Source: Bacteroidota bacterium
GTDB taxonomy: Bacteria; Bacteroidota; Rhodothermia; Rhodothermales; JAHQVL01
Assembly (NCBI GenBank): GCA_039111535.1
Contig: JBCCIM010000012.1
Coordinates: forward strand, 1 to 62,187
DNA length: 62,187 bases
Direction of reading: 5' to 3'
This document shows positions 11 to 55,612 of the stretch, one piece after another (the stretch's first letter is position 1; each line of letters begins with the position of its first letter). The translations under genes were made by a program, and so were the position numbers. The notes under the pieces are model-generated. The model searched no databases. It saw only the letters and a list, made by a program, of their open reading frames with translations, and had not been told where the DNA came from.

Positions 11-83
<73 letters not shown>

Positions 84-90
84 CATATGA

Positions 91-129: not shown

Positions 130-136
130 CCATATG

Positions 137-209
<73 letters not shown>

Positions 210-364
210 ATTTTGGTTGAGAATCCTATCAACGTCGATAGCGCCGGCTTGTTTCAGGCCGCTGAATAGATAAGCAGAAGGAGCTGGTACCATAATTTGC
301 CCTGTCAAAGTTTAACATAAATGGGTATGTTATGACAAACAGGTTAGCATGCAGGGATGCACAG

Positions 365-22081: not shown

Positions 22082-22765
22082 CTACGAACTCTTGACCCAT
22101 TCAGCTGCATAGCGGGCAAGCTCTGCGGCATCTTTGAGCATCAGCTTTTGCTTGAGTCGCGCTTTGTATGACTCTACTGTTTTAGCGCTCAGGATGAGCT
22201 TAGAGGCGATGTGCCGCGTTCTATAGCCATCCCCTATCATTCTGAACACTTCGAGCTCACGGTCACTCAGGCGGTCCACAGACGTCCCCTGGTCTGTTGT
22301 TTTGCTGTCTGAAAGCAGCTTCAGGATTTTCGAGGTGGCTTTGTCACTGGCGTATACGTCGCCATTTAACACAACGCGAATGGCCTGCACAACCTTTTCC
22401 GGGTCTTCCTCTTTCATCAGGTACCCGCGTGCGCCGGCACGCAAAGCGCGTTCTGCATACAGGTTTTCGTCGTGCATCGACAACATCAACACGGGTATTT
22501 TCGGATGGTGCGTTTTCATACTGCGCACCAGTTCCAGGCCACTAAGGCCCTTCATTTCAATGTCTACAACAACCAGATCCGGATTGAGGTCGTCAATTAC
22601 CCGCAGGGCTTCGTGGCCATCGGAGGCCTCTCCACACACCTGCAGGTCTTTTTCCTGGTTGATAAACTGGGCAATGCCCTGGCGAACAAGGGGATGATCG
22701 TCCACAATGAGAATGCGACTTCTGGCGATCTTGGTAGCTTCGGATGAGTACGGTAGTGCGTGCAT
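22082..22765 (-). CDS. NarL/LuxR-family response regulator
   Basis: 227 residues from ATG 22765, which has a good ribosome-binding site (AAGGAAG); the longer frame from 22825 would run into the kinase gene. The receiver domain has the acidic pair in I-V-D-D-H-P near 22-23, the phospho-acceptor Asp68 in V-V-V-D-I-E-M, and K-E-E-D-P near the end. The LuxR helix-turn-helix (L-S-D-R-E-L-E-V-F, then T-V-E-S-Y-K-A-R-L-K-Q-K-L) covers about 160-215. The gene starts 21 bases after the stop of a NarX-type kinase, its obvious partner. A strong terminator ends the operon. Confidence 0.95.
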   Translation of the reverse strand: MHALPYSSEATKIARSRILIVDDHPLVRQGIAQFINQEKDLQVCGEASDGHEALRVIDDLNPDLVVVDIEMKGLSGLELVRSMKTHHPKIPVLMLSMHDENLYAERALRAGARGYLMKEEDPEKVVQAIRVVLNGDVYASDKATSKILKLLSDSKTTDQGTSVDRLSDRELEVFRMIGDGYRTRHIASKLILSAKTVESYKARLKQKLMLKDAAELARYAAEWVKSS

Positions 22766-22773
22766 ATTGATTG

Positions 22774-22780
22774 CTTCCTT
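22774..22780 (-). promoter_or_regulatory. Ribosome-binding site that fixes the response regulator start
   Basis: On the minus strand AAGGAAG lies eight bases before ATG 22765. Good Shine-Dalgarno sequences are rare in this window, and this one sits in the 20-base gap after the kinase stop codon. Confidence 0.7.
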
Positions 22781-22785
22781 TTGGT

Positions 22786-24195
22786 TTAGTTCTGGGTCAC
22801 CAGGCTTGGGTTCACGAGAGAACAAGAGACGAGCGTTCCCCCCTGTGGTCGTTTGCTGATATTGAGGGCAGCATTAATCATTTGTGCGCGAAAGGCCATA
22901 ATGCGCAGTCCCATGCCTTTATTTTTTATGTTTTGAAGGCCTTTCCCATTGTCCTCTATTGAAACAATGAGCTGGTCATCTTCTTGCCTGAGCACAACTT
23001 TTACCTCACTGGCCTCGCTGTGCTTCACGGCGTTGTTAAGTGCCTCCTGGCAGATGCGGTAGATATGCATGGCTACCGTTTCATCCAGGATGGGTATTGT
23101 TAGTTTAGAGACAACGCTGCACTCCACGTCGGCAAACTGCTCTACGCGCGCAGCCAATTCTTCAATGGCCAGAATGATACCATTGCCCTTGAGGTCAACG
23201 GTTACAAGGCCCTTGGATAAATTGCGGGCGTCTGATTTTGCATCGTTCACCAGTTGTGCAATGGTCATGGCTTGCTCTGCGGCATCGCGGTCCTGGTTTT
23301 TCAACCGACGTTCCAGGCTCTTGGCCATAAAAGCCAGGCCCGTCAGTTTTTGTCCGAGACCATCGTGCAAGTCACGGCCGATCCGCTGTTGTTCGCGTTC
23401 ACTGATTTCCACCAGTTCGCGCTCAAGCCGGCGTTGCTCCGTAATTTCGCGCTGTACAGACACGTAGTGCGTAATTCGCCCCATAGAATCGCGCACAGGC
23501 GCAACATCCCATCGGACGAGATAAGGCGAATTATCTTTTTTGTAGTGCACCATTTCTGTCGAGAAAGAATCCCCGATCCGCATGGCACGGTTCATATTTT
23601 CCATCACTTCCTGGTTCGTTTTTGGCCCCTGAAAACTGGCCAGCGACTTACCAATAAGTTCTGATGGTGAATAGCCTGTCATGGCCGACATACCGTCGTT
23701 GGCATACACCACACGCGGCACTTCTTCGTCCATGTTGGTTGTCGTAATGAGGATGCCTTCGGAGGAGCTTCGAATCGCTGCGTCTAGCAGGCGCAGCTGT
23801 TCCTGGGCCTCCTTGTGCTCAAGCAGGTCGAGTACGCGGCGCTCGGCAATGGTGAGCCGCACGTTCAACAGTTCACGATCAACCGGTTTGGCCAGATAAT
23901 CATCAGCGCCGGCTTCGAGCACTTCCTCCAGATGTTGTGGCTCCGTCATGGCTGTAATAATTACAACCACGCAATAAGGGCCCATAGGCGATTCGCGGAC
24001 CTTGCGACAAAGCTCAAGTCCGCTCATACCAGGCAGCATCCAGTCCAGCACAAGCAGTGGATACGTTTTTTCCTGGAAAGCCTGCCAGGCTTCCTCCGCA
24101 TCGGCAAATGGACTTACCGTATGGCCTTGCGCAGTGACCATTTTGGTCAGCAAACGCCGGGTAATCATGTCATCTTCAACAAGTAACACTTCCAT
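22786..24195 (-). CDS. Receiver-PAS-histidine kinase (NarX type)
   Basis: 469 residues, soluble. An N-terminal receiver domain has Asp51 in L-V-L-D-W-M-L-P-G and Lys in Y-L-A-K-P-V-D. A PAS domain spans about 135-255 (Y-A-N-D-G-M-S-A-M-T-G-Y-S). The HisKA_3 dimerisation helix has the phospho-histidine near 276 (R-I-G-R-D-L-H-D-G-L-G-Q-K-L), then an HATPase domain (Q-E-A-L-N-N-A-V-K-H, D-N-G-K-G-L, G-M-G-L-R-I-M). The receiver in front suggests input from another kinase, perhaps the hybrid kinase encoded upstream, making a relay that ends in the adjacent NarL-type regulator. No membrane segment is present. Confidence 0.93.
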   Translation of the reverse strand: MEVLLVEDDMITRRLLTKMVTAQGHTVSPFADAEEAWQAFQEKTYPLLVLDWMLPGMSGLELCRKVRESPMGPYCVVVIITAMTEPQHLEEVLEAGADDYLAKPVDRELLNVRLTIAERRVLDLLEHKEAQEQLRLLDAAIRSSSEGILITTTNMDEEVPRVVYANDGMSAMTGYSPSELIGKSLASFQGPKTNQEVMENMNRAMRIGDSFSTEMVHYKKDNSPYLVRWDVAPVRDSMGRITHYVSVQREITEQRRLERELVEISEREQQRIGRDLHDGLGQKLTGLAFMAKSLERRLKNQDRDAAEQAMTIAQLVNDAKSDARNLSKGLVTVDLKGNGIILAIEELAARVEQFADVECSVVSKLTIPILDETVAMHIYRICQEALNNAVKHSEASEVKVVLRQEDDQLIVSIEDNGKGLQNIKNKGMGLRIMAFRAQMINAALNISKRPQGGTLVSCSLVNPSLVTQN

Positions 24196-24352
24196 CTATG
24201 CAACCTCTTATCGCAAGATGATATAACTTGATTTCATGTAGCTAATACAGATTTTTAAGGGGCGTCTGGCACGAGGAAAACAGGATCTCCTGTCTTCCAA
24301 TGAACAAGGATGCCAACAATTAAGCAAATACTTACCCTGACAGGTAAAGAGG

Positions 24353-26767
24353 TCAGGTATCCAGCACGTTTGCAATTACATCGTACAGCTCTTGTTTTGT
24401 AAGGGGCTTGCCCAGGTATCCGTTGAAACCGTGCGAAAGAAAACGCTCACGGTCACCTGTTACGGCATAAGCAGTCAGCGCAACAACAGGTATCTGTTCA
24501 TATCCTGACAGGTGACGTAGCGCACGCAGTGCATCCACACCGGTACGTCCGCCGCCCAGATTGATATCCATCAACACAACGTCGAACAGCTGCTCGCGCG
24601 CCAGCTCAAGAGCCAGATGCTCTTCTCCAGCCAATGCGACATCGTAACCACCTTCAAGGAATTTTTCCAGCAACCGTCGAGCATCCTGGTTGTCCTCCAG
24701 CACCAGCACCCTTGGCCGGCCACGACCGACACTGCCATCATCTTGCTTTCGGCCAGCTGCACGCCCGCGGCTATCTGCCTCGAGCACTACATCAGAAAAA
24801 GTAATAGTGAACTCCGACCCTTCGCCCAACGCACTTGCCACGTTAATTTTTCCTCCCAGAAAGTTTATCAACCGTTGTGTAATCGTTAGCCCGAGCCCGG
24901 TACCTTCGTAGGTACGGGTCATCCCGGTGCTTTCTTGCCTGAATGCCTCAAAGAGATGCGGCATAAACGGCTCACTAATGCCAATCCCGGTGTCGCGAAC
25001 CTTTATGATCAGGTCCCGATTTTTCTGTTCGATCAACACCGTTACACCACCCTGTCGGGTAAACTTGATCGCATTGCTGATCAGGTTTGACAACACACGA
25101 TCGAGGCTATCGCGATCCAGTGTGGCAAATAATTTCTTTGGCCCGGGCGCAAGCTCCAAATAGAGACCTTTCGCGCGTGCCTTGGGCTCCAGGTAATGCA
25201 CCCGGGTCAACACTTCGTCGATGATATCAAGCCGCTGCGGCTTGAGTTGCATGGTGCCAGACTCAAGCGTCGAAAGATCGAGTATTGCATTAAGTGTTTG
25301 CAACAACCGCTGTCCGCTTTGCTCGATCAGTTGTACCAGTTCTTTCTGCTCTTCGTGTACTTCGTCTTCCAAGATGGCTGCAAACCCGATAATCCCCGTA
25401 AGCGGGGTTCGAATTTCGTGGCTCATGTTGGTAAGGAAAGACGATTTGAGCAGGGTCATCTCTTCAGCCTTGCTCTGTGCAGCAACAAGTTCAGCTTCGG
25501 TTTTCTTACGGGCAGAAATGTCTTCAACCATACCGATCATGTATTCGACAGCACCTGAATCATCGCGAATTACAGCCATCGTAAGGCTGCCCCATACCAA
25601 TTTCCCGTCTTGGCGCAAATAGCGTTTTTCCAACCGATACCGATCAATTTTGCCTTCGTGTATCTGGCGGTAGAATTGCGCCTGAATCCCAAGATCTTCC
25701 TCGTGGGTGATCTCTTTGTAATTCATTTCCCGCAGATCGTCCGCTGAATAATCCAACATTTTCTGCAAAGCGGGATTGGTTTCCAGGATGCGCCCGTCGT
25801 GTGTAGACAGGATGATGCCGATACCCGCACGTTCGAACAGCGCCCAGAACCTGCGCTCGCTTCGCTCCAATGCTGCAAGCGCGCGTTTTTTATCGGTAAT
25901 GTCGCTAACCACCAGCTGAGCTGCTTTCTGGCCGTCATACTCAACGGGCACGCCGTAGCTCCGCACATAGCGCACGTGTCCGTCGAGCCGGCGAATGCGC
26001 GACTCAAGCGGCTTTGTTGCCTCTCCATTTTCAAGCAACTCAATCCGTCGCTTGAGCAATTTATGGTATGGCGCCAACGAAAACTCATACATCGAACGAC
26101 CAATCATCTCGTCGATGGCTGTTGCCCCAAAAAGGGCAGCACAGGCAGAATTTACATAGACAAAATGCTCACCTACCGTAATCGCAATGGGTTCGGGATA
26201 AGAATCAAAGAGTTGGTGCCATTTGACCCCGGCCTGCACCGAATCCTGAACGGCAACGTGTTCTTCGGTCAGCGGTTTGCCAATAAAAACGTATTTTAGT
26301 ACGCCATCAGACGGTCCGCGCTGCATGACCAGCACGGCATCCAATACCATTTGCACGCCAGATTTGTGTTGTTGAAAGACTTGCCCTTCCCATTGCCCGG
26401 AAGTCTCCAGACTCCGGGAAACAGACGCACCAGGGTCCTCCTTGAAATGCAATTGCCAGCATTCGTCAGCCGGCTTGCCAAGCACTTCATTAATTGACCA
26501 GCCGTATAGCGCTTCAGCAGCACGATTCCAGCTTCGAATAACAAATTGCTCGTCAAGGACAACTACTGCATTCGAGAGTGCCTGTAGTATCTGGCTCTCG
26601 AAAATAAAAGATCTGATCTGCGTGCGAACGCTTGCGTTCCTGCCACTCGTCCTGCCGGCATCGGTGGCGGATCCCCCGGTTTTACGGTCAGATGACGCAG
26701 CCCCCAGGAGCTGGCTCCAACCGAAGGGTGATACCCTTTTTGCCATAACAAATTTCGCCTCTTCCAT
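24353..26767 (-). CDS. Hybrid sensor kinase with three PAS domains and a C-terminal receiver
   Basis: 804 residues from the ATG at 26767; the longer frame begins with GTG at 26776. No signal peptide or membrane helix is seen, so it is cytosolic. Three PAS domains lie at about 55-165, 170-285 and 295-415; the third ends in a PAC motif (Y-M-I-G-M-V-E-D-I-S-A-R-K). HisKA follows with its His near 447 (N-M-S-H-E-I-R-T-P-L), then HATPase with N-A-I-K-F-T, D-T-G-I-G-I and G-T-G-L-G-L. The C-terminal receiver has Asp in V-V-L-M-D-I-N-L-G-G. It precedes the NarX-type kinase by 157 bases on the same strand. Confidence 0.94.
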   Translation of the reverse strand: MEEAKFVMAKRVSPFGWSQLLGAASSDRKTGGSATDAGRTSGRNASVRTQIRSFIFESQILQALSNAVVVLDEQFVIRSWNRAAEALYGWSINEVLGKPADECWQLHFKEDPGASVSRSLETSGQWEGQVFQQHKSGVQMVLDAVLVMQRGPSDGVLKYVFIGKPLTEEHVAVQDSVQAGVKWHQLFDSYPEPIAITVGEHFVYVNSACAALFGATAIDEMIGRSMYEFSLAPYHKLLKRRIELLENGEATKPLESRIRRLDGHVRYVRSYGVPVEYDGQKAAQLVVSDITDKKRALAALERSERRFWALFERAGIGIILSTHDGRILETNPALQKMLDYSADDLREMNYKEITHEEDLGIQAQFYRQIHEGKIDRYRLEKRYLRQDGKLVWGSLTMAVIRDDSGAVEYMIGMVEDISARKKTEAELVAAQSKAEEMTLLKSSFLTNMSHEIRTPLTGIIGFAAILEDEVHEEQKELVQLIEQSGQRLLQTLNAILDLSTLESGTMQLKPQRLDIIDEVLTRVHYLEPKARAKGLYLELAPGPKKLFATLDRDSLDRVLSNLISNAIKFTRQGGVTVLIEQKNRDLIIKVRDTGIGISEPFMPHLFEAFRQESTGMTRTYEGTGLGLTITQRLINFLGGKINVASALGEGSEFTITFSDVVLEADSRGRAAGRKQDDGSVGRGRPRVLVLEDNQDARRLLEKFLEGGYDVALAGEEHLALELAREQLFDVVLMDINLGGGRTGVDALRALRHLSGYEQIPVVALTAYAVTGDRERFLSHGFNGYLGKPLTKQELYDVIANVLDT

Positions 26768-26776
26768 GGGGGGCAC

Positions 26777-43029: not shown

Positions 43030-44648
43030 TCTGGAGTGCCTTCCTTTAACGACAGCGGCTCTGCTTCATAAAAAGCAATTCTACCGTCTTTATGCTTCAC
43101 ACGAAAGAGAACCGGTTCACCCTGCTCACCTACTGTTTCAAACAGGGTCAACGCGCTTTCGAGAGAGTATACCGTTTCTCCGTTAACTTCCAATAACACA
43201 ACATCCCTGGGCAAGCGCGCCTTCGCTCCTTCTCCTCCCCGCCTTACAAATGCAATGTAAACACCATGCGGTACGTCATACTGGGTGCGCACCTGGTCTG
43301 TGAGTTGTTTGATACCTATGCCCCACTCCTCTATCTCGAAAGCCGTATCAGCACCGAAGCTTTCAGGCTCGATTTCAGGGACGGCGCGGCGGCGATCTCG
43401 GTCTTCCGCCTGCTGATCAAGGGCGGCCGTCCAGGCCCGGTATGAGGCGTCTTCTTTGCCAAAAAGTTCAACGTGAAATACACGCATCGCATTATTTCGC
43501 CACACTTCAACTTTGAGTCGATCACCCGGACGGTGAATGGCAACTACACGCTGGAGCTCATTGGGCTCGCTCACTTCTCGCCCTTCTATCGACAACACAA
43601 CATCATCCACTTCAAGGCCGGCTTTGGCTGCCGCGCTCAACGGATCCACTACACTCAATTGAACACCTGTAATACGATCCAGACCAAATCTCCGCGCTGA
43701 TGCTGCATCAATGGGAGAAATAGTTACGCCGAGGTAACCACGCTGTACTTCACCGTACGCAATTAAATCTTCCACAACCCGCTCCACGAGATTCACGGGC
43801 ACCGCAAAACCATAGCCTTCATAAGATCCAGACTCGGTAGCAATGGCTGTGTTGATACCAATCAATTCGCCATAAACATTTACGAGTGCGCCGCCCGAGT
43901 TACCAGGGTTAATCGCAGCATCAGTCTGAATAAAATCTTCTATCCCAAAAGCGTCTTCAATAATATTGACCTGCCGGCCCAACGCGCTTACAATGCCGGC
44001 CGTAACCGTAGAGGTAAGCCGAAAAGGGTTGCCAACAGCAATGACCCATTCGCCAACCGACACGTTATCCGAATTCCCAAAAATAGCAGAAGGCAGGGTA
44101 TCGTTGGTCTTTGCTTTTAATACCGCAAGGTCTGTAGATGGATCTGTACCGACAACGGTGGCTGCGTACTGTCGTTTGTCATCCAGCGTGACGGTAACTT
44201 CATCAGCACCTTCAACCACGTGATTGTTGGTGACGATATACCCTGTTTCGCTAATGATGACCCCACTACCAACGCTCTGACGTGGTTGTCCGAATCGGGG
44301 CAACCAGCCGCGCTCAGAACCGCTGTCAGCCATTTCAACGCGGATATAAACCACAGCCGGCGTAACGTTGCTTGCAACAAATTGAAAACTCTCACTGAGT
44401 GAGGTAAGGCCGCTAAGCTGATCTTCTTCATTGGCAAGAGAATCCGCAGGGCGATAGTGTGGCGCCTCCGATCTGTTGCCCAATTCTACGCGTTCAACAA
44501 TGGGCCGGCGTGAACCGTCTTCCATTTGCCCATTGATCACAAAGAGCATGATAAGAATACCCGCGAGCAATCCTGCGAGGACCAACCCAATGCCGGTAAG
44601 CAACGATATGCGTTGCGGCTTTTGTGGTGTGTTTGATGTTTCAGGCAT
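43026..44648 (-). CDS. HtrA/DegP-like serine protease with two PDZ domains
   Basis: 540 residues. An N-terminal membrane anchor lies at about 16-40 with no clear cleavage site, then a trypsin-like domain. The catalytic triad is visible: His in T-N-N-H-V-V-E-G near 142, Asp in S-T-D-L-A-V-L near 172, and Ser in N-P-G-N-S-G-G-A near 250. The first PDZ (G-Y-L-G-V-T-I-S) covers about 300-395 and a second about 430-530. It probably handles misfolded envelope proteins. It overlaps plsC upstream by eight bases and aroC downstream by four, forming a compact plsC-htrA-aroC operon. Confidence 0.93.
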   Translation of the reverse strand: MPETSNTPQKPQRISLLTGIGLVLAGLLAGILIMLFVINGQMEDGSRRPIVERVELGNRSEAPHYRPADSLANEEDQLSGLTSLSESFQFVASNVTPAVVYIRVEMADSGSERGWLPRFGQPRQSVGSGVIISETGYIVTNNHVVEGADEVTVTLDDKRQYAATVVGTDPSTDLAVLKAKTNDTLPSAIFGNSDNVSVGEWVIAVGNPFRLTSTVTAGIVSALGRQVNIIEDAFGIEDFIQTDAAINPGNSGGALVNVYGELIGINTAIATESGSYEGYGFAVPVNLVERVVEDLIAYGEVQRGYLGVTISPIDAASARRFGLDRITGVQLSVVDPLSAAAKAGLEVDDVVLSIEGREVSEPNELQRVVAIHRPGDRLKVEVWRNNAMRVFHVELFGKEDASYRAWTAALDQQAEDRDRRRAVPEIEPESFGADTAFEIEEWGIGIKQLTDQVRTQYDVPHGVYIAFVRRGGEGAKARLPRDVVLLEVNGETVYSLESALTLFETVGEQGEPVLFRVKHKDGRIAFYEAEPLSLKEGTPE

Positions 44649-45432
44649 TATTATCGACGTTGGTATCGACCGTTGCGGAGAGGCGGCTCAGCGCGGTAAC
44701 TGCATCATAGGAAAGCCGGGCCAGTTCTTTTCGATCACGATTGGTTGTGTCAATTGGTTCCCCTACGTGAATTTCAAATATGATTTTTTTCAGCGACAGG
44801 ATGTCCCATGCATGCAAAAACAGCGGCTGACCGTTGGTCCATGTGAAGCCGGTTAGATAGTCGCCAGATGCCGGCTCACCATCTGCCGTGATACCCCGCA
44901 TGTAGAAAGGCAAAATTGCGCCACCCTCCATATTAGCTACAGCAGCAAATGCCCCCGTTTTAAACGGTAGAATTCCCATACCGTCGCTGGTCGTTCCTTC
45001 CGGAAAGACCAATACCCTGATGCCTTCCCTGATCCGGTGCTGTACTTGCTCTACAAATTTGCCAGTCTGCATCCGTCTCTCACGCTTCACAAAGATCACA
45101 CCGACCAGTTTACAAACCCATCCGATAACAGGCCAATTGCCAATTTCAGCTTTTGCTGCAAACGCAACCGGCATTTGAGAAGATAACAGAAAGGGGTCGA
45201 GTAAACCAAGGTGGTTACTTACCGCCAACATAGCGCCTTTTGTAGGAATTTCGCCGACAAGGTGCACCTCTACGCCCAGCAGGTGACATAGTTTGGCTGT
45301 TGCCTTGCGCTGCCAGTTTGCTTTAAAAAGGGGCAATTCTTCCGATTCCACGCGCCGCTCTGCCAGGCGCAATCGTATTGCCTGGGTAATCATGGTGTTA
45401 AAAAAGCGAATCATTCGCCAAATCCGACGCAT
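44641..45432 (-). CDS. plsC: 1-acyl-sn-glycerol-3-phosphate acyltransferase (PlsC family)
   Basis: 263 residues. A membrane-associated acyltransferase of phosphatidic-acid synthesis. The catalytic H-x4-D motif is S-N-H-L-G-L-L-D near 93; the substrate motif is V-F-P-E-G-T-T-S near 160, followed by F-K-T-G-A and a P-F-Y-M-R-G loop. The N-terminal 45 residues are amphipathic. The first gene of the overlapping plsC-htrA-aroC cluster. The exact acceptor (lysophosphatidate or another lysolipid) cannot be told from the sequence. Confidence 0.9.
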   Translation of the reverse strand: MRRIWRMIRFFNTMITQAIRLRLAERRVESEELPLFKANWQRKATAKLCHLLGVEVHLVGEIPTKGAMLAVSNHLGLLDPFLLSSQMPVAFAAKAEIGNWPVIGWVCKLVGVIFVKRERRMQTGKFVEQVQHRIREGIRVLVFPEGTTSDGMGILPFKTGAFAAVANMEGGAILPFYMRGITADGEPASGDYLTGFTWTNGQPLFLHAWDILSLKKIIFEIHVGEPIDTTNRDRKELARLSYDAVTALSRLSATVDTNVDNNA

Positions 45433-45639: not shown

Positions 45640-48600
45640 CTATTGTATAGCCGGATGTGGATCCTGTGCCCTGCGATCGCTCGTTTTATCATCAGGCGCT
45701 GCCGGCAGTGTCACTTCATCAATCTGGAATGAAACTGTAAACGTACTGCCGATACCCTTTTTACTGTCTACCTTGATTCTGCCATGAAGCAATTCTACAA
45801 GCTTGGCAGTAATGGTGAGCCCCAGTCCGCTGCCTTCCACCCGCACATCATTGTTGGGCTCTTGTTTAAATTCTTCAAACAACTGCGGGATAAAGTCGGG
45901 GTCGATGCCAACTCCTGTATCTACAACATGGACGTGCACCTGGTCCACGTCTTTCTCTATTTCAATGCGTACGCCACCTTCGTGGGTAAACTTAATCGCG
46001 TTGCCAACCAGGTTATACAGAATCCGCTCGTAACAATCTTCATCCAACCGCACCATGATCCGCTCAGGTGGCGTATTAACGGTGAGGGTGAGGTTACGAT
46101 TTTTTGCAAGCTGGTTGAGGAGGTCAACCACTTCTTCCGTTTTCTCTCCGATCTCAAACCGCTCAAAACTCAGTTCAAACATGCCGGCGCGCAGTTTTGC
46201 GAGATCAAGCAATGAATTGATCGTTTTCAGGAGCCGTTTTCCGTTTTCGTCTATCAGACCAAGAAACTCCAGGTTTTCCTGTGGCACTTCTTCCTTAAGA
46301 ACGGAAGTGAAGCCCAGAATGGCAGTAAGCGGCGTACGCAATTCATGCGATGCATTAGCCAAAAACTCGTCCTTCATCTGGTTGGCCTGCTCCAAGCTCG
46401 AGTTTGCTGTTCGGAGTTGTGTGTTTGCCAATTGTAGACGCGCATTCAGTTCACGTTCAATGTTGAGCAAAATCAGCTCTTTTTTTGCACGCTGAAAACG
46501 CACAAATTGCAGCAAACTAAACCCGAGAAAAAGCACATAAAGAGACTTGGTCCACCAACTCCAGAACCAGGGCGCCTTTACCGTAATCGGAATGGCAGCC
46601 TTCTGTCCCATTGGCATGCCAGAGACGCGAGACTCCAGTTCAAAGGTAACACGGCCAGGCGAGATATTGCGGTAATCGGCAAATCGCTCTTTCGTCCATG
46701 CAGACCAGCCACTGCTATGTCCTTCAAGTTTGTGTCGAAATTCTACCTGGTCGCGTTTACTATACATTGGCAGGGTAAAATCAAACCGGAAATCATTGTC
46801 TCGGTGCGACAAATCCAACGCCAGGTGTTTACCTTCCTGAAACTTTGCGTTCGCAACCGTACTGGAAAAAGCCCCGCCATACAGTGCATCTTCCGAAAGG
46901 ATCGAAATGTGCCGGACCAGCGGGTCAACGGTATTGTTCAGTAAGGGATTCGGACGCACGTCAGGCTCGAATTTAAACAGGGGGCGCACCCGCGTACTGC
47001 TGAACCAGACAGGTCCATTAGGCTCTGCATACAGATGCTTTACTTTGCCCCAATCAGGCAGCATCGCATCTTCAGAAAACACTTCGATGGCTGCAGAATC
47101 CTGATAAGACTGGATGTGCTCTAATCTATCCCGATACAATACCCAGTAACCGGAATCGGCATCACTCACAAAGTCAACAACCGGATTGTTTGCGGTGACT
47201 CCTGCGGCAAAGAACGCCTGAAACGCTTCATCAAGCACAAGTTCAAACCCTTCTGGCAATTCGTTCTTTGCAGCACGAAAAATTCCTTTGGGCAGGGCAA
47301 TCACACCTAACGTGCCACCGATATCTTCGACATACATACTTGAAACGCCCATCGCCCGGCCGCTAGCAACCTGCATGGTCTTGCTTACTTCACCCGCCGA
47401 ATCAAAGGTGACGTGCCAGAGTTCTGCCGGCTCGGTTGTACCTATCCAAAGCGAGCCATCAGCCGACTCATACATTGACGATATTTTACGCCCAATTTCA
47501 TCATACTTTTTGGCAGTATACGTCGGCCCCTTCATGGACATGACACCCCATCCCATATCGAGCCCTACATACATGCGCGCGTCGTGGAATTGGGATTTGA
47601 GTAATACCCCGGGCTTGTGCGACACTTCAAAAGCTATATTCTCAGCAAAGTGTTCTCCATCACGATCTTCCGTTACCCGAATAACACCATATTCAGAAGC
47701 GACGTACAAGGCGTCCTCCTCTGAACTAAGTCCCCAAAAAATACCATTGGATATGTCTGATATTTTTATCCGCTTGAAATGAGGAAAATCTTTTTCTGAT
47801 TCCGCTTTTCCGATACGGTCTTCCAGGGTAAAAAGTCCGTCGTTGGTTGCCACATAGAGCCGGCCCTTGTGCCGGCGTACATCGTTGACTGCACCTTTCA
47901 AGCCTTCCATGATACCGTACGAAGACAACCCCGCAGGAGAAGCCATATAAGAAAGCCCCGTAACGTTGTGCGCCAACCATAGTCCACCATGCGCATCCAC
48001 AAACGTTGCGTTTACATCTTCCCCTACTCCCCTGTCAGCATCAAGAGTCTCTACCAGACTGCCATCTTGATCTAAAACAAATACGCCGTGATAGAGCGTA
48101 GATAAGGCAAAATACCCAGCAGGTAATATGCTCCCATGGTAAAAGGTGTAGACGTCTACATCGTTGTCAAGATGGGAGTCGAGTGTCAATGCGGTTAGCC
48201 CTTCCGAATTATAACGATAAGCTTCAAGGGGGCCTTCAAGGCCTTTCTGTACATAGATGCGTACTGCGTTTGTAGCGTCCGCTCCCATGAACACAACCCG
48301 ATGATTGGCAAAACGCTCCGTACCAGGCAATAATGTCATTGCATCACCATCGATGGCCATAATGCCGATGCCATCCCGCTTCACGTAAAAGGTATCGTTA
48401 ACAACAAAGGACGTGTGCATGCGCTCCGCAGAGCGCCATGTTGTAATCTCGCTACCATCCCAACGAAAGAGATGCGAATTGGATTGATAAAATACGCCTG
48501 CGGTGGTTGCGTCGGTGTTCCAGATCTCACCGAATCGGAGTGTATCGCTTTCGGACAGAAACGGCAATAACGAGCGATATTCGAGTGTTCCTGTTGAATC

Positions 48601-48939
48601 TGGCGCCAAAAATCCAAATTCATCTCTGGCGCCGGCGTGTACGGTGCCATTGAGGCTTTTGCCAACAGAAAAGACGGTGGCAGAATCTGGCACATGAATG
48701 ATACGCCAGGTATCAGCGTCATATTCTAAAACGCCGTTGCTGTTTGCGACATATATAAGGCCACGATCGTCTTGGGTAATCGACCAGTTTTGGCCCATAT
48801 TGGGCAGTGACTCCTGATCATAGAGTGCCAACCCGTACGCCTGACCAGCGTACTCGTGCGCCTGAATTGACTGCGCAGATACTTCGACACTACAAAGCGC
48901 AAGTACAAGCAACAAACTATGTAACAATGCATACCGCAT
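45640..48939 (-). CDS. Beta-propeller sensor histidine kinase (two-component regulator propeller type)
   Basis: 1099 residues. A signal peptide (1-22, ending V-S-A-Q) is followed by a periplasmic part of about 750 residues made of propeller-like repeats (for example D-D-R-G-L-I-Y-V-A-N-S-N-G-V and G-S-L-W-I-G-T-T-E-P). A Y_Y_Y-like domain (E-F-R-H-K-L-E-G-H-S-S-G-W-S-A-W) near 710 precedes one membrane helix near 795. A coiled coil, HisKA (N-A-S-H-E-L-R-T-P-L, His near 865) and HATPase (N-A-I-K-F-T, D-T-G-V-G-I, G-S-G-L-G-L) end the protein. Unlike many relatives there is no C-terminal receiver or AraC domain, and no response regulator is adjacent. It diverges from the lipopeptide locus. Confidence 0.92.
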   Translation of the reverse strand: MRYALLHSLLLVLALCSVEVSAQSIQAHEYAGQAYGLALYDQESLPNMGQNWSITQDDRGLIYVANSNGVLEYDADTWRIIHVPDSATVFSVGKSLNGTVHAGARDEFGFLAPDSTGTLEYRSLLPFLSESDTLRFGEIWNTDATTAGVFYQSNSHLFRWDGSEITTWRSAERMHTSFVVNDTFYVKRDGIGIMAIDGDAMTLLPGTERFANHRVVFMGADATNAVRIYVQKGLEGPLEAYRYNSEGLTALTLDSHLDNDVDVYTFYHGSILPAGYFALSTLYHGVFVLDQDGSLVETLDADRGVGEDVNATFVDAHGGLWLAHNVTGLSYMASPAGLSSYGIMEGLKGAVNDVRRHKGRLYVATNDGLFTLEDRIGKAESEKDFPHFKRIKISDISNGIFWGLSSEEDALYVASEYGVIRVTEDRDGEHFAENIAFEVSHKPGVLLKSQFHDARMYVGLDMGWGVMSMKGPTYTAKKYDEIGRKISSMYESADGSLWIGTTEPAELWHVTFDSAGEVSKTMQVASGRAMGVSSMYVEDIGGTLGVIALPKGIFRAAKNELPEGFELVLDEAFQAFFAAGVTANNPVVDFVSDADSGYWVLYRDRLEHIQSYQDSAAIEVFSEDAMLPDWGKVKHLYAEPNGPVWFSSTRVRPLFKFEPDVRPNPLLNNTVDPLVRHISILSEDALYGGAFSSTVANAKFQEGKHLALDLSHRDNDFRFDFTLPMYSKRDQVEFRHKLEGHSSGWSAWTKERFADYRNISPGRVTFELESRVSGMPMGQKAAIPITVKAPWFWSWWTKSLYVLFLGFSLLQFVRFQRAKKELILLNIERELNARLQLANTQLRTANSSLEQANQMKDEFLANASHELRTPLTAILGFTSVLKEEVPQENLEFLGLIDENGKRLLKTINSLLDLAKLRAGMFELSFERFEIGEKTEEVVDLLNQLAKNRNLTLTVNTPPERIMVRLDEDCYERILYNLVGNAIKFTHEGGVRIEIEKDVDQVHVHVVDTGVGIDPDFIPQLFEEFKQEPNNDVRVEGSGLGLTITAKLVELLHGRIKVDSKKGIGSTFTVSFQIDEVTLPAAPDDKTSDRRAQDPHPAIQ

Positions 48940-49679: not shown

Positions 49680-49943
49680 ATGAAACGCTCCCAGCTTATA
49701 CCAGTAGCCCTGTTTTTGGCCCTAACCTTTTGGGCTGTGCCACAGGCTTCATTTGCCGGCACAAGCTCAACGTCACCTGGCGCTATACACACTTCCGATC
49801 CTGAGCCCAGGTCTTACAACACCCCCAATCTGGACAAGCAAGATGGCTTCGATGCTGTTGCGCATAAAGAAAAGCTCCAGAGCAAGCCAAGACAGGTAAA
49901 GCAATTCACGTCGGACAAACCTCTCGACAAGCATAACCTGTAG
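49680..49943 (+). CDS. Small secreted protein of unknown family
   Basis: 87 residues. Residues 1-26 form a clear signal peptide (hydrophobic I-P-V-A-L-F-L-A-L-T-F, cleavage after A-S-F-A). The mature part of about 61 residues is hydrophilic, has no Cys, is rich in Asp, Lys, Ser and Pro, and ends K-H-N-L. I do not recognise a family. Its position, signal peptide and size group it with the two tiny lipoproteins that follow at 50081 and 50274, which also end in N-L. The spacer to the next gene is 137 bases. Confidence 0.65.
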   Translation: MKRSQLIPVALFLALTFWAVPQASFAGTSSTSPGAIHTSDPEPRSYNTPNLDKQDGFDAVAHKEKLQSKPRQVKQFTSDKPLDKHNL

Positions 49944-50080
49944 TCTGCGCGCGCTATAGATCCAGCGCTGCAATTTCCCAAATTTTCCCAACGTGTGTCT
50001 GCTATTGACAGGCCCATGCCATGCGTGCGTGTACGCCATTTTTTCAATCGATCCAAACAACCAACAAAACCAACAATCCT

Positions 50081-50230
50081 ATGAAAACGATCAAAAACCT
50101 CGTCATTCTCGCATTCTTCGCTGGCTCCACTATGCTCTTTGGCTGCAACGCAGCTGAACTGGCAGGCCCAGAAGCACCGCAGACACAAAATGACTGCGAA
50201 AACGAATGCTCCAACGGACGCAACCTGTAA
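50081..50230 (+). CDS. Tiny lipoprotein, copy 1 of a tandem pair
   Basis: 49 residues from ATG 50081. A lipoprotein signal ends in M-L-F-G with the lipid-bearing Cys at residue 22, leaving a predicted 28-residue mature lipopeptide. That peptide has two more cysteines four apart near its end (N-D-C-E-N-E-C-S-N-G-R-N-L). It has no family I can name. Residues 13-49 are identical to copy 2 at 50274-50435, although the first 12 residues differ. At DNA level the shared block (50117-50230 against 50322-50435) has six differences, all synonymous, so the peptide is real and conserved. The reading frame could extend to 50021, but the signal peptide argues for 50081. Confidence 0.83.
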   Translation: MKTIKNLVILAFFAGSTMLFGCNAAELAGPEAPQTQNDCENECSNGRNL

Positions 50231-50273
50231 TTCCTAATTCTCAAAACGACTCATTCTTCCTGAGGTATTCCTT

Positions 50274-50435
50274 ATGAAACGTGTTGCAAATTTTGCCAAA
50301 TCTCTCTTCGTCATCACACTCTTCGCCGGCTCTACCATGCTCTTTGGCTGCAACGCAGCTGAACTAGCCGGCCCAGAAGCACCGCAGACACAAAACGACT
50401 GCGAAAACGAATGCTCCAACGGACGCAACCTGTAA
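50274..50435 (+). CDS. Tiny lipoprotein, copy 2 of a tandem pair
   Basis: 53 residues. It begins 43 bases after copy 1 with a GAGG ribosome-binding sequence about ten bases ahead. The N-terminus (M-K-R-V-A-N-F-A-K-S) differs from copy 1, but from F-A-G-S-T-M-L-F-G-C onward the protein is identical. The lipid-bearing Cys is residue 26, and the mature peptide is the same 28 residues with the C-x3-C near the end. A strong terminator follows 26 bases after the stop, so copies 1 and 2, perhaps with the 49680 gene, form a transcription unit of their own. Confidence 0.85.
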   Translation: MKRVANFAKSLFVITLFAGSTMLFGCNAAELAGPEAPQTQNDCENECSNGRNL

Positions 50436-50460
50436 GCATCATTTTCCAGCCTGCATTGAG

Positions 50461-50496
50461 ACCCGGGCAGCACATTGCTGCCTGGGTTTTTTATTT
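50461..50496 (+). terminator. Rho-independent terminator after the lipoprotein pair
   Basis: ACCCGGGCAGCA (50461-50472) pairs with TGCTGCCTGGGT (50476-50487), with one G-T pair and loop CAT, followed by TTTTTATTTT. It separates the lipoprotein genes from fecR. Confidence 0.93.
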
Positions 50497-50614
50497 TCAG
50501 GCCCTGCGGCATGTTACTTTTTCTGCTGGTTGTGCGGCTTAATCAGTGCTTACATGCCCAAAGAAGCCCAACTACAAATTTCTGTCTCTTGATACAACGC
50601 TATACTAGTCGACA

Positions 50615-51775
50615 ATGAACGACGTTTTAGAAGCGATAATTTTTTTCGATGACCTTTCCCTCGAAAAACAAAATGCGCTTTTTGCTGAAATAGAAAAAGA
50701 CCCGAACCTGAGCCGTTCTTTTAAACGGTGGCGCGGATTGCAGCAAAAAGTGCGTGCAAGCATTGGCACCCAGCTGCCAGACAGAAATTTACTTGTACTG
50801 CAGGCTTTGGCCCAGGAAGATGCAGCATTGCTGACAGAAGATGAGCAGCGCGCACTATCCTCGGCAAAAAAAGATCTGGACAATGCACTGCGCGTGCATC
50901 CCGGACTTTCCGATGTTATAGACGACATCAAAAACGCACGTTCAGATTTCCTGAGTGTTTGGGATGACCTCGCAAACGCGTCAGATGTAAGACCCGCCTT
51001 ATCTTTCGCGCCAGATCGAGCTACGACAAAGCCAAAACGCCGCAGTCCTGCCCTTACGCGCATTGCGTCGGTGTTTACCGTATTGGCCCTGGTGGTAACT
51101 GCAAGCATTCTGATGTGGCGGAGTCAAAACCTGGAAATTGTCAGAACTTCGCCAGGAGAATTCAAAGTTATAGAATTAACCGACGGTTCTACGGTGCGGC
51201 TTTTTGGAAAATCCAAGATTTCTTATACCAAACACCAGGAGGCTTTCAGCCAGAACCGCGAAATTGAGCTGAAAGGTCGCGCTTTTTTTGACATTGCCCC
51301 TAAAACAGCCCCGTTTGTTGTTCAAACATCCACGGCGTTGACAGAAGCTACCGGCACGCGGTTCAGCATTGAAGCGGACCGGTCGCTAACAAGAGTTATC
51401 CTTACAGCCGGCCAGGTGGCTGTATCCTCGCGCAAACGGCGGGGAGAGAACATCTTGCTGGCCCCCGGACAAATGACACGCGTACCACGAAGAAGCGCAC
51501 CAAGTAACCCGGAATCCATCGTCGACCTTACCGACATGCTAAGCTGGACAGGCCTGCTCGTCTTCCATGACACGCCACTGGATGAAGTAGCTGCCCACCT
51601 GAGCGCTCACTATAACGTCACCGTCGACATCGATTCGCAACTCCTGGATGAACAATGGGTAGCCACCTACGACCCCGACACCCTCTCCGTGGACGAAATC
51701 CTCGACAACCTCGCCGCCACCCTCGGTGCGCGCGTTGAGACAAGTGGGGGAAACACGTTTCTACTTAGACCTTAG
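50615..51775 (+). CDS. FecR-family anti-sigma/transmembrane regulator
   Basis: 386 residues. An unusually long cytoplasmic part (about 145 residues) precedes one membrane helix (about 148-170, I-A-S-V-F-T-V-L-A-L-V-V). The FecR domain follows at about 172-270 (I-E-L-T-D-G-S-T-V-R-L, G-R-A-F-F-D-I-A, A-T-G-T-R-F-S-I, L-T-A-G-Q-V-A-V). A DUF4974/STN-like domain closes the protein (about 305-386, L-V-F-H-D-T-P-L-D-E-V). Such proteins pass a signal from a TonB receptor to an ECF sigma factor. The receptor gene is 213 bases downstream, but no sigma factor lies beside it. The N-terminal part does not look like the usual sigma-binding domain. Confidence 0.85.
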   Translation: MNDVLEAIIFFDDLSLEKQNALFAEIEKDPNLSRSFKRWRGLQQKVRASIGTQLPDRNLLVLQALAQEDAALLTEDEQRALSSAKKDLDNALRVHPGLSDVIDDIKNARSDFLSVWDDLANASDVRPALSFAPDRATTKPKRRSPALTRIASVFTVLALVVTASILMWRSQNLEIVRTSPGEFKVIELTDGSTVRLFGKSKISYTKHQEAFSQNREIELKGRAFFDIAPKTAPFVVQTSTALTEATGTRFSIEADRSLTRVILTAGQVAVSSRKRRGENILLAPGQMTRVPRRSAPSNPESIVDLTDMLSWTGLLVFHDTPLDEVAAHLSAHYNVTVDIDSQLLDEQWVATYDPDTLSVDEILDNLAATLGARVETSGGNTFLLRP

Positions 51776-51988
51776 TACGCAAATCCTAGCCCCTCATCAA
51801 GTCGATTTTGTCTGGCCCAGGGCACAAATAACACGCATTGTAACATCCTGAAGGGTTACCGCGTCATAATCTCGCACACTGGTCGGAATACTAAGGTTCA
51901 TCGAAGATTAAGGGATCTCCCACGCAAGCATTGAACCCTTGGGTCGGCCAGTTGTATTTTATGCTGAATCACTGCTCATCTGCTGCAC

Positions 51989-54649
51989 GTGAAGCATTTC
52001 TTACACAATTTCAACTTATGGGCGCTCGCGCTTTTTGTTCTTTTTTCGAGTCCACGGATCTCGAACGCGCAGACTATTGACCTGGATTTTGAGAAGGTAC
52101 CGCTCACACAGGCCCTCACAACACTCGGCTCTCAGACTGGCGTTGACTTCATTTACGCCGTCCGCCTGGTCTCCCGGCACAACACCACGTGCACCTATGC
52201 CGGCACAGACACGGACGCGGCATTAGACTGCCTCTTAAAAGAGAGTAATATCTTTGCCAAGCGCTTGCATGCACGTCAATACTTGCTTGCACCATTACGC
52301 CCAGCCTCTGGTGCAATCAATGCTCCCGATGCCTATTTGCCTCCCCTGATTCAAGGTAGAATTCTGGATGCCGTAACCGGTGTGGCATTACCCGGGGCAC
52401 ACATTTATATCCCTGATATCCGACGCGGCACGACTTCAGACCGAAGTGGACAGTTTTCTTTCTCTCAAAAGCAGGATACCGTGTATTATGCCCACGTATC
52501 CTACATAGGCTACAAAACGGCGAAGTCACGCCTATACCCCAAAACGCAACCATTCACCATTTATTTGCAACCTATAGCCCTTGAAGCCACAACAGTACTG
52601 GTTGAGGCCCAGGGCGATGAAGAGGCAGACCTTGCTGCTGTACCGGGGCTTGTTGCGCTGAATATCCAAGACCTGGACAACGTCCCGAGCTTTGGTGGCG
52701 AAAAAGACCTTTTCCAGACCTTGCAATGGACGCCTGGCGTACATAAAGCCGGCGTATTCAATAACGATCTCCTTATACGAGGCGGCCTTGCAGACCAAAA
52801 CCTCTATTTGCTGGACGGTGCACCCATTTACCACCCCTGGCATGCATTTAACCTTGTCTCCACCTTCCAGACCGATTCGTTTGATCGCATCAAACTCTAT
52901 CGCGGCTCTTTCCCTGCACAACATGGGGGACGACTGGCTTCCGTGCTGGATGCACGACTCAAAGATGGTAACCGCGCAAATCCTAAAACCATCGCAAGTT
53001 TCAGCCTATTGAGTGGCCGTTTTATGATCGAAAGCCCGCTTACCAAGCGGACTTCCTTCATGATCTCCGGCCGAAGGTCATACCTGGATAAAGTCATTGG
53101 AACAGAACACCCAGTGCAAGATGCCTCAGGCCGGCGAGATACGCTGCGCACCGGCTATCATTTTTCGGATATCACCTCCAAATTAAGCTTTCGCCCCAAT
53201 CGCCAGCATAAACTCTCTTTCACCTTCTATTCAGGGGGAGACGAACTGGATTTACGGCTGCCTTTTGATTTATCGCTCGACTTCTCCTCCTGGCTTCGGC
53301 CGGCAGACCTGTTTTTTGAAGTTGAACACAACTGGGGCAACCGGCTTTATAGCATGCAACATCAATACGTGCATACAGATCGGCTCCTGTTTACAACTAC
53401 TGCCTACAGAACAAGCTATAACGCAACGGAAAGCGAGCTCGTACGCCCAACCAGTAGTTCACTCGTCCAATCCAGGTACCATGTCCGCGTAAAAGACATT
53501 GGTGTACGTACAGACATTGACTTTTTCCTGTCCTCTCGTCACCACATGCAGGGCGGCTACCAGGTCATTGGCCACACCTTCAATAGTTCGCTGATATCGA
53601 CGCTTCAACGCTCGGAAAGCTCTACAAAATACCAGGATCAGACGAGCGACCTGACGGCGTTCGAAGTGGCAACCTACATTCAGGACAATTGGCAGCCCAA
53701 TAACAAATGGCTCATTCAACCAGGCCTTCGCTTAAGCTACTTTAGCGGCGGTCAGTATACGTTCCTGAGCCCGCGACTCAATGTCCAATACATTGTAAAC
53801 CCACGGTACCTCATCTTAAAAGGGGCCATAGGGAGACAAGTGCAGTATATGCAGCAATTGCGCGACCGCTACTCGTTCATGTACGACCTGGTCTCCAGCC
53901 GCTGGATCCCTACCAGCGACAACATCAAACCTTCCACCAGTGTACAAACGTCTCTCGAAGCTGAAAGTCAGATTTTGCCCTGGCTCAAGCTGGCCAGCGA
54001 AGTATACTGGCGCGATTCGGAAAACATTTTACTCCCGCGAGACGAATTCCAAACCAAAGATGGCATCGATGGGCCAGGCATTGAAGTAGCCAGCCTGCTT
54101 GCACAGTACACCCCTGGCCTTGCGCGCGCTTATGGCATGGAGTTCACCGGCATCATTGAACGGGGGCACTGGCGCTGGTTGCTGAGTTACACAGGGGGGC
54201 GTTCAAAAAGCAAAGCACCAACGCTAAACGAATCTTCGTTCAGACCAACCCGGTTTGACGTCCCACGTGCAGTAAAAAGCGCGATTATCCGTCAGTACAC
54301 AGATTGGCACCTTACGCTTTCAACAACCATTCGAAGTGGATATCCGATTACAGTACCCGTTGCGCAATACGATTTGTCGGGCCCCGGAGAAGATGAGCCT
54401 ACCCAGTATTTATATCGCCCACAAATCAATAATGGCCGGCTGCCGGCGTACATCCGGTTTGACATGAGTGTAGGCTACAGGTTCGATATGCTCGGTGCAA
54501 AGTGGCATACCAAATTCCACCTGTACAATTTCACAAACAAGCGGAACGTAATTGACAGGTTTTATGACCCAACAGGTGAAACCGTGAAAATTCAGAACCG
54601 CAAAGGACTCCCCATTCTGCCTTTGTTTGAGCTTGAAATGGAGCTTTGA
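51989..54649 (+). CDS. TonB-dependent receptor with STN and carboxypeptidase-regulatory domains
   Basis: 886 residues, starting at a GTG. A signal peptide (1-27, ending S-N-A-Q) is followed by the STN (secretin/TonB short N-terminal) domain at about 30-90 (F-E-K-V-P-L-T-Q-A-L). A CarboxypepD_reg-like domain lies at 118-195 (G-R-I-L-D-A-V-T-G-V-A-L-P-G-A). The plug domain follows from about 225 (G-G-E-K-D-L-F-Q-T-L-Q-W-T-P-G-V, L-I-R-G-G-L-A-D-Q-N), then an outer-membrane barrel to the end. The STN domain is the signalling module that talks to a FecR protein, encoded directly upstream. The substrate is unknown. The start has no alternative ATG in frame nearby. Confidence 0.9.
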   Translation: MKHFLHNFNLWALALFVLFSSPRISNAQTIDLDFEKVPLTQALTTLGSQTGVDFIYAVRLVSRHNTTCTYAGTDTDAALDCLLKESNIFAKRLHARQYLLAPLRPASGAINAPDAYLPPLIQGRILDAVTGVALPGAHIYIPDIRRGTTSDRSGQFSFSQKQDTVYYAHVSYIGYKTAKSRLYPKTQPFTIYLQPIALEATTVLVEAQGDEEADLAAVPGLVALNIQDLDNVPSFGGEKDLFQTLQWTPGVHKAGVFNNDLLIRGGLADQNLYLLDGAPIYHPWHAFNLVSTFQTDSFDRIKLYRGSFPAQHGGRLASVLDARLKDGNRANPKTIASFSLLSGRFMIESPLTKRTSFMISGRRSYLDKVIGTEHPVQDASGRRDTLRTGYHFSDITSKLSFRPNRQHKLSFTFYSGGDELDLRLPFDLSLDFSSWLRPADLFFEVEHNWGNRLYSMQHQYVHTDRLLFTTTAYRTSYNATESELVRPTSSSLVQSRYHVRVKDIGVRTDIDFFLSSRHHMQGGYQVIGHTFNSSLISTLQRSESSTKYQDQTSDLTAFEVATYIQDNWQPNNKWLIQPGLRLSYFSGGQYTFLSPRLNVQYIVNPRYLILKGAIGRQVQYMQQLRDRYSFMYDLVSSRWIPTSDNIKPSTSVQTSLEAESQILPWLKLASEVYWRDSENILLPRDEFQTKDGIDGPGIEVASLLAQYTPGLARAYGMEFTGIIERGHWRWLLSYTGGRSKSKAPTLNESSFRPTRFDVPRAVKSAIIRQYTDWHLTLSTTIRSGYPITVPVAQYDLSGPGEDEPTQYLYRPQINNGRLPAYIRFDMSVGYRFDMLGAKWHTKFHLYNFTNKRNVIDRFYDPTGETVKIQNRKGLPILPLFELEMEL

Positions 54650-54703
54650 TTGCTTCATGCACGTATACAACAGCCCCACACGCCCGTATACCGTAAGTTA
54701 AAA

Positions 54704-55612
54704 ATGCGTCACGGCCTCTATTTCCTTTTCATCCTGTGCGTTCTAACGGGATGTGACAGCATAGAACCAACAGCGGAGAACCTGCTTGTTGTTGAAGGCT
54801 TCCTTGACGCGGGCAAACCGCTGCCCAATGTCTCCATCACGCGCGTGCAGCCGCTGACGGCTGCCAGCGCCGGCACAAGCATCAACGAAGCGGTATCAGA
54901 CGCCAGCCTGTCTCTGATCATCAACAATACGCCCGTCCCATACCGACCTTCAGCCTCCTCACCGGGCACCTACGAGCCGGCAACTTCCGTTTTTGAGGTA
55001 GTCCCTCCGCATGCCCGCTTTTCCGCTGAAGTCAACTGGCAATCACAACGCGCAACCACAACAGACATCGTTCCACCGCCGATTGCTATTGAAGATGTAT
55101 TTATTCGCATCCCGGAATCACCAGTTTCTGCGGTACTCCTGGATTCACTTCGACTTGAAGATCAGGAAGTGGGTGCACGCATGGGTTTTATCTACCCTAT
55201 TGATGTTTCCGTAAGCTGGCAAAACGAAATGCCGGCAACAGACACTACCTACTGGATAGAAGCCCGCCTAAAGCCACAATCTGATTTTTCGTCCACCGTG
55301 CTCGACGTTTTCCTACTCACGGAAGATGTACAGGTGGAAGATTCGCTGCGCACTACAGGCTCTACCCGGTTTAGCTGGTCAGGCGTCTATGCCATCCCGG
55401 TGCCGGACAGCCTCGCGCCGGCGCCAGCACACCTGCTTACCGTACAGCTTACTCGCGGCACCAAAGCTTACGCTGATTTTGCAGCAAGCCGAAATGCACC
55501 GGAACGACGTGAACCCGTGTCCAATATCGCTGGCGGCATTGGCATCCTGGCCGGCATTTCGCTGGACGCAATAGTATTTGAGGTGAAGGATGGCGTGGCA
55601 ACGGCGCAATAA
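54704..55612 (+). CDS. DUF4249 lipoprotein, partner of the TonB receptor
   Basis: 302 residues from ATG 54704, where a lipoprotein signal begins (F-I-L-C-V-L-T-G-C-D-S); the longer frame from 54650 lacks one. L-L-V-V-E-G-F-L-D-A-G-K-P and V-S-I-T-R-V-Q-P-L open the domain as in DUF4249 proteins. In Bacteroidota these are coupled to a STN-type TonB receptor, as here, and are thought to be the surface substrate-binding lipoprotein. The gene starts 54 bases after the receptor stop codon and overlaps recX by 23 bases. Confidence 0.8.
   Translation: MRHGLYFLFILCVLTGCDSIEPTAENLLVVEGFLDAGKPLPNVSITRVQPLTAASAGTSINEAVSDASLSLIINNTPVPYRPSASSPGTYEPATSVFEVVPPHARFSAEVNWQSQRATTTDIVPPPIAIEDVFIRIPESPVSAVLLDSLRLEDQEVGARMGFIYPIDVSVSWQNEMPATDTTYWIEARLKPQSDFSSTVLDVFLLTEDVQVEDSLRTTGSTRFSWSGVYAIPVPDSLAPAPAHLLTVQLTRGTKAYADFAASRNAPERREPVSNIAGGIGILAGISLDAIVFEVKDGVATAQ

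What the first reader, a model, noticed from the sequence alone, without database searches (positions are those of the whole stretch)
50081..50435. Tandem lipopeptide genes with only synonymous differences
The last 37 codons plus stop of both genes (50117-50230 and 50322-50435) differ at six positions: GCT/GCC, TCC/TCT, ACT/ACC, CTG/CTA, GCA/GCC and AAT/AAC. All are silent. The N-terminal signal segments, in contrast, differ freely. So the predicted 28-residue mature lipopeptide, with cysteines at positions 1, 18 and 22, is under strong selection. In layout (two tiny tandem lipoproteins) it recalls entericidin pairs, and in size the colicin lysis lipoproteins, but the sequence resembles neither. 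The shorter and longer signal segments could give different timing or location for one peptide.
Basis: partly seen in the sequence, partly recalled or inferred. Interest (0 to 1): 0.75.

Follow-up and report, generated by a model that had tools for sequence, protein, structure and literature searches.

The report
Repeat-motif lipopeptides paired with sensor kinase
The two tiny twin genes belong to a previously unlisted family of short, membrane-anchored peptides that, across one bacterial order (Rhodothermales), is kept beside one particular membrane sensor kinase and carries repeated copies of a short histidine-asparagine-like motif, so it is probably that sensor's partner or trigger rather than a toxin.

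Summary
In detail: the last 37 codons of the two ORFs differ at six sites, all silent. The same pattern recurs independently in two genomes of the same family (12 silent codons, no replacement in one). The mature peptide is not conserved between genomes, however. Only the lipobox Cys, an S-L-x-G stretch and a terminal G/P-x-N remain, and the cysteine pair is absent from one relative.

The pair belongs to a lipoprotein family with no adequate match in Pfam, NCBIfam or the PDB. It was found in 41 of 114 genomes of the order (Rhodothermales) and convincingly nowhere else. Elsewhere the family carries 1-7 copies of [G/A/S/D/E/P]HN inside one gene (for example GGADGHNA x7, GGDNSHNI x6, GGDGHNV x5). 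In several genes these copies differ only silently.

In 34 genomes the gene lies divergently beside a double-propeller sensor histidine kinase. Those kinases fall together in a tree of 140 propeller sensors. Two genomes keep both genes unlinked. The kinase operon includes plsC and htrA in several lineages.

Best reading (inferred): a tethered peptide partner or ligand of that kinase, QseG-QseE-like in logic but not a QseG homologue. Entericidin and colicin-lysis kinship is not supported.

The parts
50081..50230 (+). lipopeptide gene A: signal peptide + lipobox (MLFG|C) + 28-residue mature part ending G-R-N-L
   Evidence: family profile hit 7.8e-10
50274..50435 (+). lipopeptide gene B: longer signal peptide, identical mature part
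   Evidence: family profile hit 3.2e-12
49680..49943 (+). companion secreted (non-lipoprotein) peptide, 87 aa, with internal TPNL and C-terminal KHNL
   Evidence: counterparts ending THNL, LHNL, PQNL at the same locus in G002 and G001
50458..50490 (+). intrinsic terminator (15-pair stem, T-rich tail) closing the lipopeptide unit before fecR
45640..48939 (-). divergent sensor histidine kinase, 1099 aa: signal/TM, two beta-propellers, Y_Y_Y, TM, HisKA, HATPase; no receiver domain
   Evidence: Pfam; model; Foldseek to BT4663 sensor; orthologues beside lipopeptides
44641..45432 (-). plsC-like acyltransferase, downstream of the kinase; same order in L149 and L247, present beside an orphan lipopeptide in L255
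43026..44648 (-). HtrA/DegQ-like PDZ protease, overlapping plsC; same order in L149, present in L255
50615..51775 (+). FecR-type anti-sigma regulator; beside the lipopeptides only in the window's family
51989..54649 (+). TonB-dependent receptor with STN-like signalling domain (weak STN hit)
54650..55612 (+). DUF4249 lipoprotein, usual partner of such receptors (family knowledge)

Best explanation
The two genes make short lipoproteins that act as the membrane-tethered partner (ligand or co-sensor) of the divergently encoded double-propeller histidine kinase. After signal peptidase II cleavage and lipidation at Cys, a flexible Gly/Asn/Asp-rich tail would present one or more copies of a small docking motif (consensus G-H-N; in the window's family G/P-R/H-N-L) to the kinase's periplasmic propellers, and so switch or tune it. 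Tails with several identical repeats, or two genes giving identical tails, would raise dose or valency, and identical tails would be needed because both must fit the same receptor. The kinase's operon with plsC and htrA suggests an envelope-state signal. SHOWN: family, repeats, silent-only divergence, stable pairing and co-retention with one kinase clade, kinase fold. INFERRED: lipidation, location, binding, direction of the effect, envelope-stress role.
For: Profile A1 finds the family in 41 of 114 genomes of the order at E<=1e-6. In 34 genomes it lies divergent from the kinase, with the lipoprotein start 60-500 nt from the 5' limit of the kinase frame in 17 loci measured. In a tree of 140 propeller kinases the 34 linked kinases need 4 label changes (shuffled mean 30.8; 0 of 500 as low) and lie outside a 102-row clade (support 95) that has none. 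The two unlinked kinases that fall among them (G060, G100) come from genomes that keep the lipopeptide elsewhere. Invariant in 25 members: Met1, lipobox Cys, one Gly and the motif Asn. Silent-only divergence between the twin genes and between internal repeats, for example SDGGNE x6 and GGDGHNV x5. The sensor is modelled as a double propeller (pLDDT 85) matching the BT4663 periplasmic sensor (TM to 0.72). Precedents: lipoprotein QseG binds and activates the kinase QseE (PMC12691602, PMC6075780), and NlpE signals to Cpx (PMC6538781).
Against: No binding, expression or localisation data. The divergent layout is equally typical of a regulator and its target. Three or four genomes keep the lipopeptide without an adjacent kinase (G089, G096, G101; G057 at a contig end), some from incomplete assemblies. 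The closest fold precedent, BT4663, senses a sugar. The motif is loose: His is replaced by Arg, Gln or Gly in some members.
Confidence: 0.45

Rival explanations
1. The lipopeptide is an output of the kinase, not its input: a small structural or surface lipoprotein whose expression the kinase controls, with the repeats serving a coat or adhesion role.
For: Divergent regulator-target layout; a strong terminator makes the lipopeptides a separate unit; low-complexity Gly/Asn tails.
Against: The kinase has no DNA-binding part and no response regulator was identified in the examined neighbourhoods, so divergence does not itself imply autoregulation. A structural coat would not need near-exact copies or an invariant Asn. 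Co-retention persists when the genes are unlinked.
Confidence: 0.22
2. A multi-copy peptide pheromone: the repeated units are cut out of the lipoprotein (HtrA next door is one candidate protease) and sensed by the propeller kinase, and in the window's family also by the FecR/TonB receptor system.
For: Tandem near-identical 7-8 residue units; identical mature parts in twin genes; extra secreted peptides with the same NL ending (NL ends only 11 of 1613 background ORFs, but all 4 companions); htrA in the kinase operon in some lineages.
Against: No conserved cleavage site; many members have only one motif; the lipid anchor argues against free diffusion; HtrA is not linked in all lineages.
Confidence: 0.15
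3. A metal- or calcium-binding lipoprotein that acts as buffer or co-sensor: His/Asn/Asp/Gly repeats such as DNDGDGHNN resemble ion-binding loops.
For: Repeat composition.
Against: His and the acidic residues are missing in several members (window: SNGRNL; G001: EPRNL), while pairing with the kinase persists. No Pfam EF-hand or RTX hit at E<=0.01 in any of the 25 members.
Confidence: 0.1
4. Entericidin-like or lysis-lipoprotein-like toxic peptides.
For: Size, lipobox and tandem layout; weak entericidin A hit restricted to the signal peptide.
Against: The two mature parts are identical, unlike a toxin/antidote pair; the match is 16 bits against a cut-off of 86; pairing is with a sensor kinase across an order; no colicin or other bacteriocin neighbour was seen.
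Confidence: 0.04

Closest known systems
QseG-QseE (accessory lipoprotein and histidine kinase, Enterobacteriaceae; PMC6075780, PMC12691602)
   Same: A lipoprotein gene stably neighbouring a sensor kinase gene; in QseEG the lipoprotein binds and activates the kinase from the periplasm
   Different: QseG is a folded protein of about 221 residues in an operon with the kinase and response regulator; here a 28-75 residue disordered-looking repeat tail, divergent gene, propeller sensor, no adjacent response regulator found, and no sequence similarity reported by the family scans
NlpE-Cpx (lipoprotein trafficking monitor; PMC6538781)
   Same: Single lipoprotein read by an envelope-stress kinase; here htrA lies in the kinase operon
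   Different: NlpE is larger and unlinked to cpxA; no repeats (own knowledge)
Hybrid two-component sensors of Bacteroides (BT4663 type)
   Same: Periplasmic double-propeller plus Y_Y_Y sensor fold
   Different: Window kinase ends after HATPase (no receiver, no AraC domain) and pairs with a lipopeptide, not a polysaccharide-utilisation locus
Entericidin A/B and colicin lysis lipoproteins
   Same: Tiny lipoproteins, tandem layout
   Different: Identical mature parts, no family match above the signal peptide, different genomic partner

Membership tests
Entericidin (EcnA/EcnB) | Match to the family model across the mature part | tested here: not met
   NF007319 16.4 bits vs cut-off 86, residues 4-26 only; no Pfam hit
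Entericidin (EcnA/EcnB) | Two different mature peptides (antidote and toxin) | tested here: not met
   Mature parts identical
Colicin lysis (release) lipoprotein | Family match and a bacteriocin operon | tested here: not met
   No Pfam or NCBIfam hit; neighbours are kinase, FecR and TonB receptor
Accessory lipoprotein of a histidine kinase (QseG-like in function) | Lipoprotein signal peptide with lipobox | tested here: met
   Lipobox Cys invariant in 25 of 25; lipidation itself not shown
Accessory lipoprotein of a histidine kinase (QseG-like in function) | Conserved gene neighbourhood or co-occurrence with one kinase | tested here: met
   34 genomes linked, 2 co-retained unlinked
Accessory lipoprotein of a histidine kinase (QseG-like in function) | Direct binding and activation of the kinase | not testable with these tools
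   Needs biochemistry or complex prediction
QseG family (homology) | Sequence similarity to QseG | tested here: not met
   No such family among Pfam or NCBIfam hits; no PDB sequence hit at E<=0.1
Propeller sensor histidine kinase (BT4663 type), for 45640-48939 | Double propeller + Y_Y_Y + HisKA + HATPase | tested here: met
Hybrid two-component system (HTCS) | Fused receiver and AraC-type output domains | tested here: not met
   No Pfam receiver or AraC hit; the protein ends about 26 residues after HATPase

The most novel reading that the evidence does not exclude
A lineage-wide, previously undescribed mode of kinase control in which a lipid-anchored peptide with a variable number of copies of a tiny G-H-N-type motif is the dedicated ligand of a propeller sensor. 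Dose or valency would be set by repeat number or by tandem genes kept identical, and the sequence would turn over together with the receptor.
Probability: 0.35. Interest if true: 0.8.

Novelty: new variant of a known kind. Interest (0 to 1): 0.6.

Why it matters
Propeller sensor kinases are abundant in Bacteroidota-like phyla and most have no known ligand (own knowledge). Here a large clade has a protein partner that can be proposed from genomics alone and tested directly. The family has no usable entry in Pfam or NCBIfam and shows an unusual evolutionary signature: motif copies frozen within a genome at the protein level, yet quickly replaced between genomes. If confirmed, it extends the lipoprotein-kinase concept (QseG, NlpE) to a minimal peptide form outside Pseudomonadota.

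Tried and rejected
Purifying selection on this particular 28-mer across species: rejected, mature parts differ between genera. Disulfide between the C-terminal cysteines as the key feature: not general, since G001 has none although G002, G060 and G100 have a Cys pair. Antisense ORFs at 50044-50244 and 50234-50512: explained as mirror frames of the conserved + frame. NL C-terminus as a PDZ (HtrA) ligand: other members end in N, D or E. FecR/TonB receptor as the ancestral partner: rejected, outside the window's family FecR is not at the lipopeptide locus and, where checked, sits beside its sigma gene. First genome-contig scan with the single peptide found nothing. Paper searches for such a system in Rhodothermales, for NVEALT and for repeat-precursor peptides gave nothing relevant. 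Weak profile hits in G187 and G226 (other orders) match only the signal end of larger frames and are judged spurious.

Full report
OBSERVATION. The two ORFs and all six silent differences are as described. Under simple mutation models, six of six silent changes has a chance of about 1e-4 to 5e-4. This repeats in relatives. Genome G002 (same family) has a tandem pair, split between contigs C294 and C132, with 12 silently changed codons and no replacement over 47 codons. In G001 the mature parts of the pair differ only silently, while the signal peptides carry replacements. The genes are therefore translated and, within each genome, held to one mature sequence.

BETWEEN GENOMES the mature peptide is not conserved. 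The three forms are CNAAELAGPEAPQTQNDCENECSNGRNL (window), CSADSLTGVQDDEAPAVQSECRGSDCPNGHNL (G002) and CNAASLTGPEPSDVQATGGTGGNGGDSHGENEPRNL (G001). Lipobox, [SE]-L-x-G and the end G/P-x-N-L remain. The cysteine pair is missing in G001.

FAMILY. Searching the order with the neighbouring kinase and reading the divergent side of each hit revealed a family of small lipoproteins, usually CxxDSLxG(P/S) followed by a Gly/Asn/Asp/Thr-rich tail with one or more H-N motifs: GGGENHNT x4, GGDNSHNI x6, DGGSGHN x3-5, SGDSHNV x4, GGDGHNV x5, GGADGHNA x7, SDGGNE x6, and a duplicated ...GADHNN block in Rhodothermus relatives. In 25 aligned members only Met1, the lipobox Cys, one Gly and the motif Asn are invariant. 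The window family appears to have replaced internal repeats by tandem genes (inference).

DISTRIBUTION. The profile finds 41 of 114 genomes of the order at E<=1e-6, from seven families, and no convincing member in the rest of the class or in the phylum sample. Named records identical to some loci (Salinivenus lutea and S. iranica, a Rhodothermus MAG) place the order as Rhodothermales. No usable Pfam, NCBIfam or PDB match exists; the scattered hits of one or two members are to lipoprotein signal regions or low-complexity repeats.

PARTNER. The linked kinases form one side of a tree of 140 propeller kinases. The clade of 102 without the lipopeptide includes paralogues from the same genomes and kinases of KSB1, Cytophagales, Acidobacteriota and Pseudomonadota. 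Two kinases on the linked side that lack the neighbour come from G060 and G100, which carry the lipopeptide on another contig. In the window, in a Salinibacteraceae genome (L149) and partly in two other lineages, the kinase is followed by plsC and then htrA. The sensor was modelled with good confidence (pLDDT 85, pTM 0.82), and its best solved relatives are the periplasmic sensors BT4663 and BT3049. It has HisKA and HATPase domains but no receiver. Residues more conserved in linked kinases than in others lie mainly in the first propeller.

WINDOW-FAMILY EXTRAS. Beside the lipopeptides lie one or two further secreted peptides without a lipobox, each with an internal and a terminal NL motif (KHNL, THNL, LHNL, PQNL). 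NL ends only 11 of 1613 background ORFs. A strong terminator closes the lipopeptide unit. A FecR-TonB receptor pair follows. In G008, G012, G014 and G021 this FecR lies next to its ECF sigma gene, whereas in the window's family the sigma orthologue is elsewhere (G000:C5) and FecR-receptor lies at the lipopeptide locus. That move may link two trans-envelope signalling systems, or be coincidence.

MECHANISM. The data show a stable, vertically kept pair: a motif-bearing lipopeptide and one propeller kinase. The simplest mechanism is that the lipopeptide is the kinase's tethered partner. QseG, an outer-membrane lipoprotein, binds and activates its kinase QseE (PMC6075780, PMC12691602), and NlpE reports lipoprotein trafficking to Cpx (PMC6538781). 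Repeats or twin genes would supply several copies of one docking motif. Binding, lipidation, location and sign of the effect are inferred. The main rival is that the lipopeptide is an output of the kinase. A processed pheromone and an ion-binding role are possible; a toxin role is unlikely.

VERDICT. The feature is real, belongs to an unlisted family, and gives a testable candidate partner for an otherwise ligand-less sensor clade.

Noticed in passing
window 1-220: Near-perfect inverted repeat of about 94 nt, each arm holding a tRNA-Ala(ggc) gene (11-84 +, 136-209 -); it lies at the start of the contig and may be an assembly fold-back or a real palindromic tRNA pair.
   Followed up: partly
window 50615-54649; G000:C5:27515-28060: The FecR/TonB receptor pair is separated from its ECF sigma orthologue in the window's family, while sigma and fecR stay adjacent in other families of the order that were checked.
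   Followed up: partly
window 49680-49943; L024 2164-2445; L026 1922-2170; L025 1985-2347: Dissimilar secreted peptides share an internal and a C-terminal x-N-L motif with the lipopeptides; possible second peptide class of the same system.
   Followed up: partly
L122 102-314 (-) (G106:C296): A lipoprotein with CDATITGPQQ but no HN motif lies divergent from a hybrid propeller kinase; could be a degenerate or independent member.
   Followed up: no
L255 (G089), L245 (G096), L246 (G101): Orphan family members without an adjacent kinase; in G089 the lipopeptide sits directly beside plsC-htrA, as if the kinase gene had been lost.
   Followed up: partly
window 22082-26776: ORFs whose N-termini look like response-regulator receivers in the same window; not tested as partners of the orphan kinase.
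   Followed up: no
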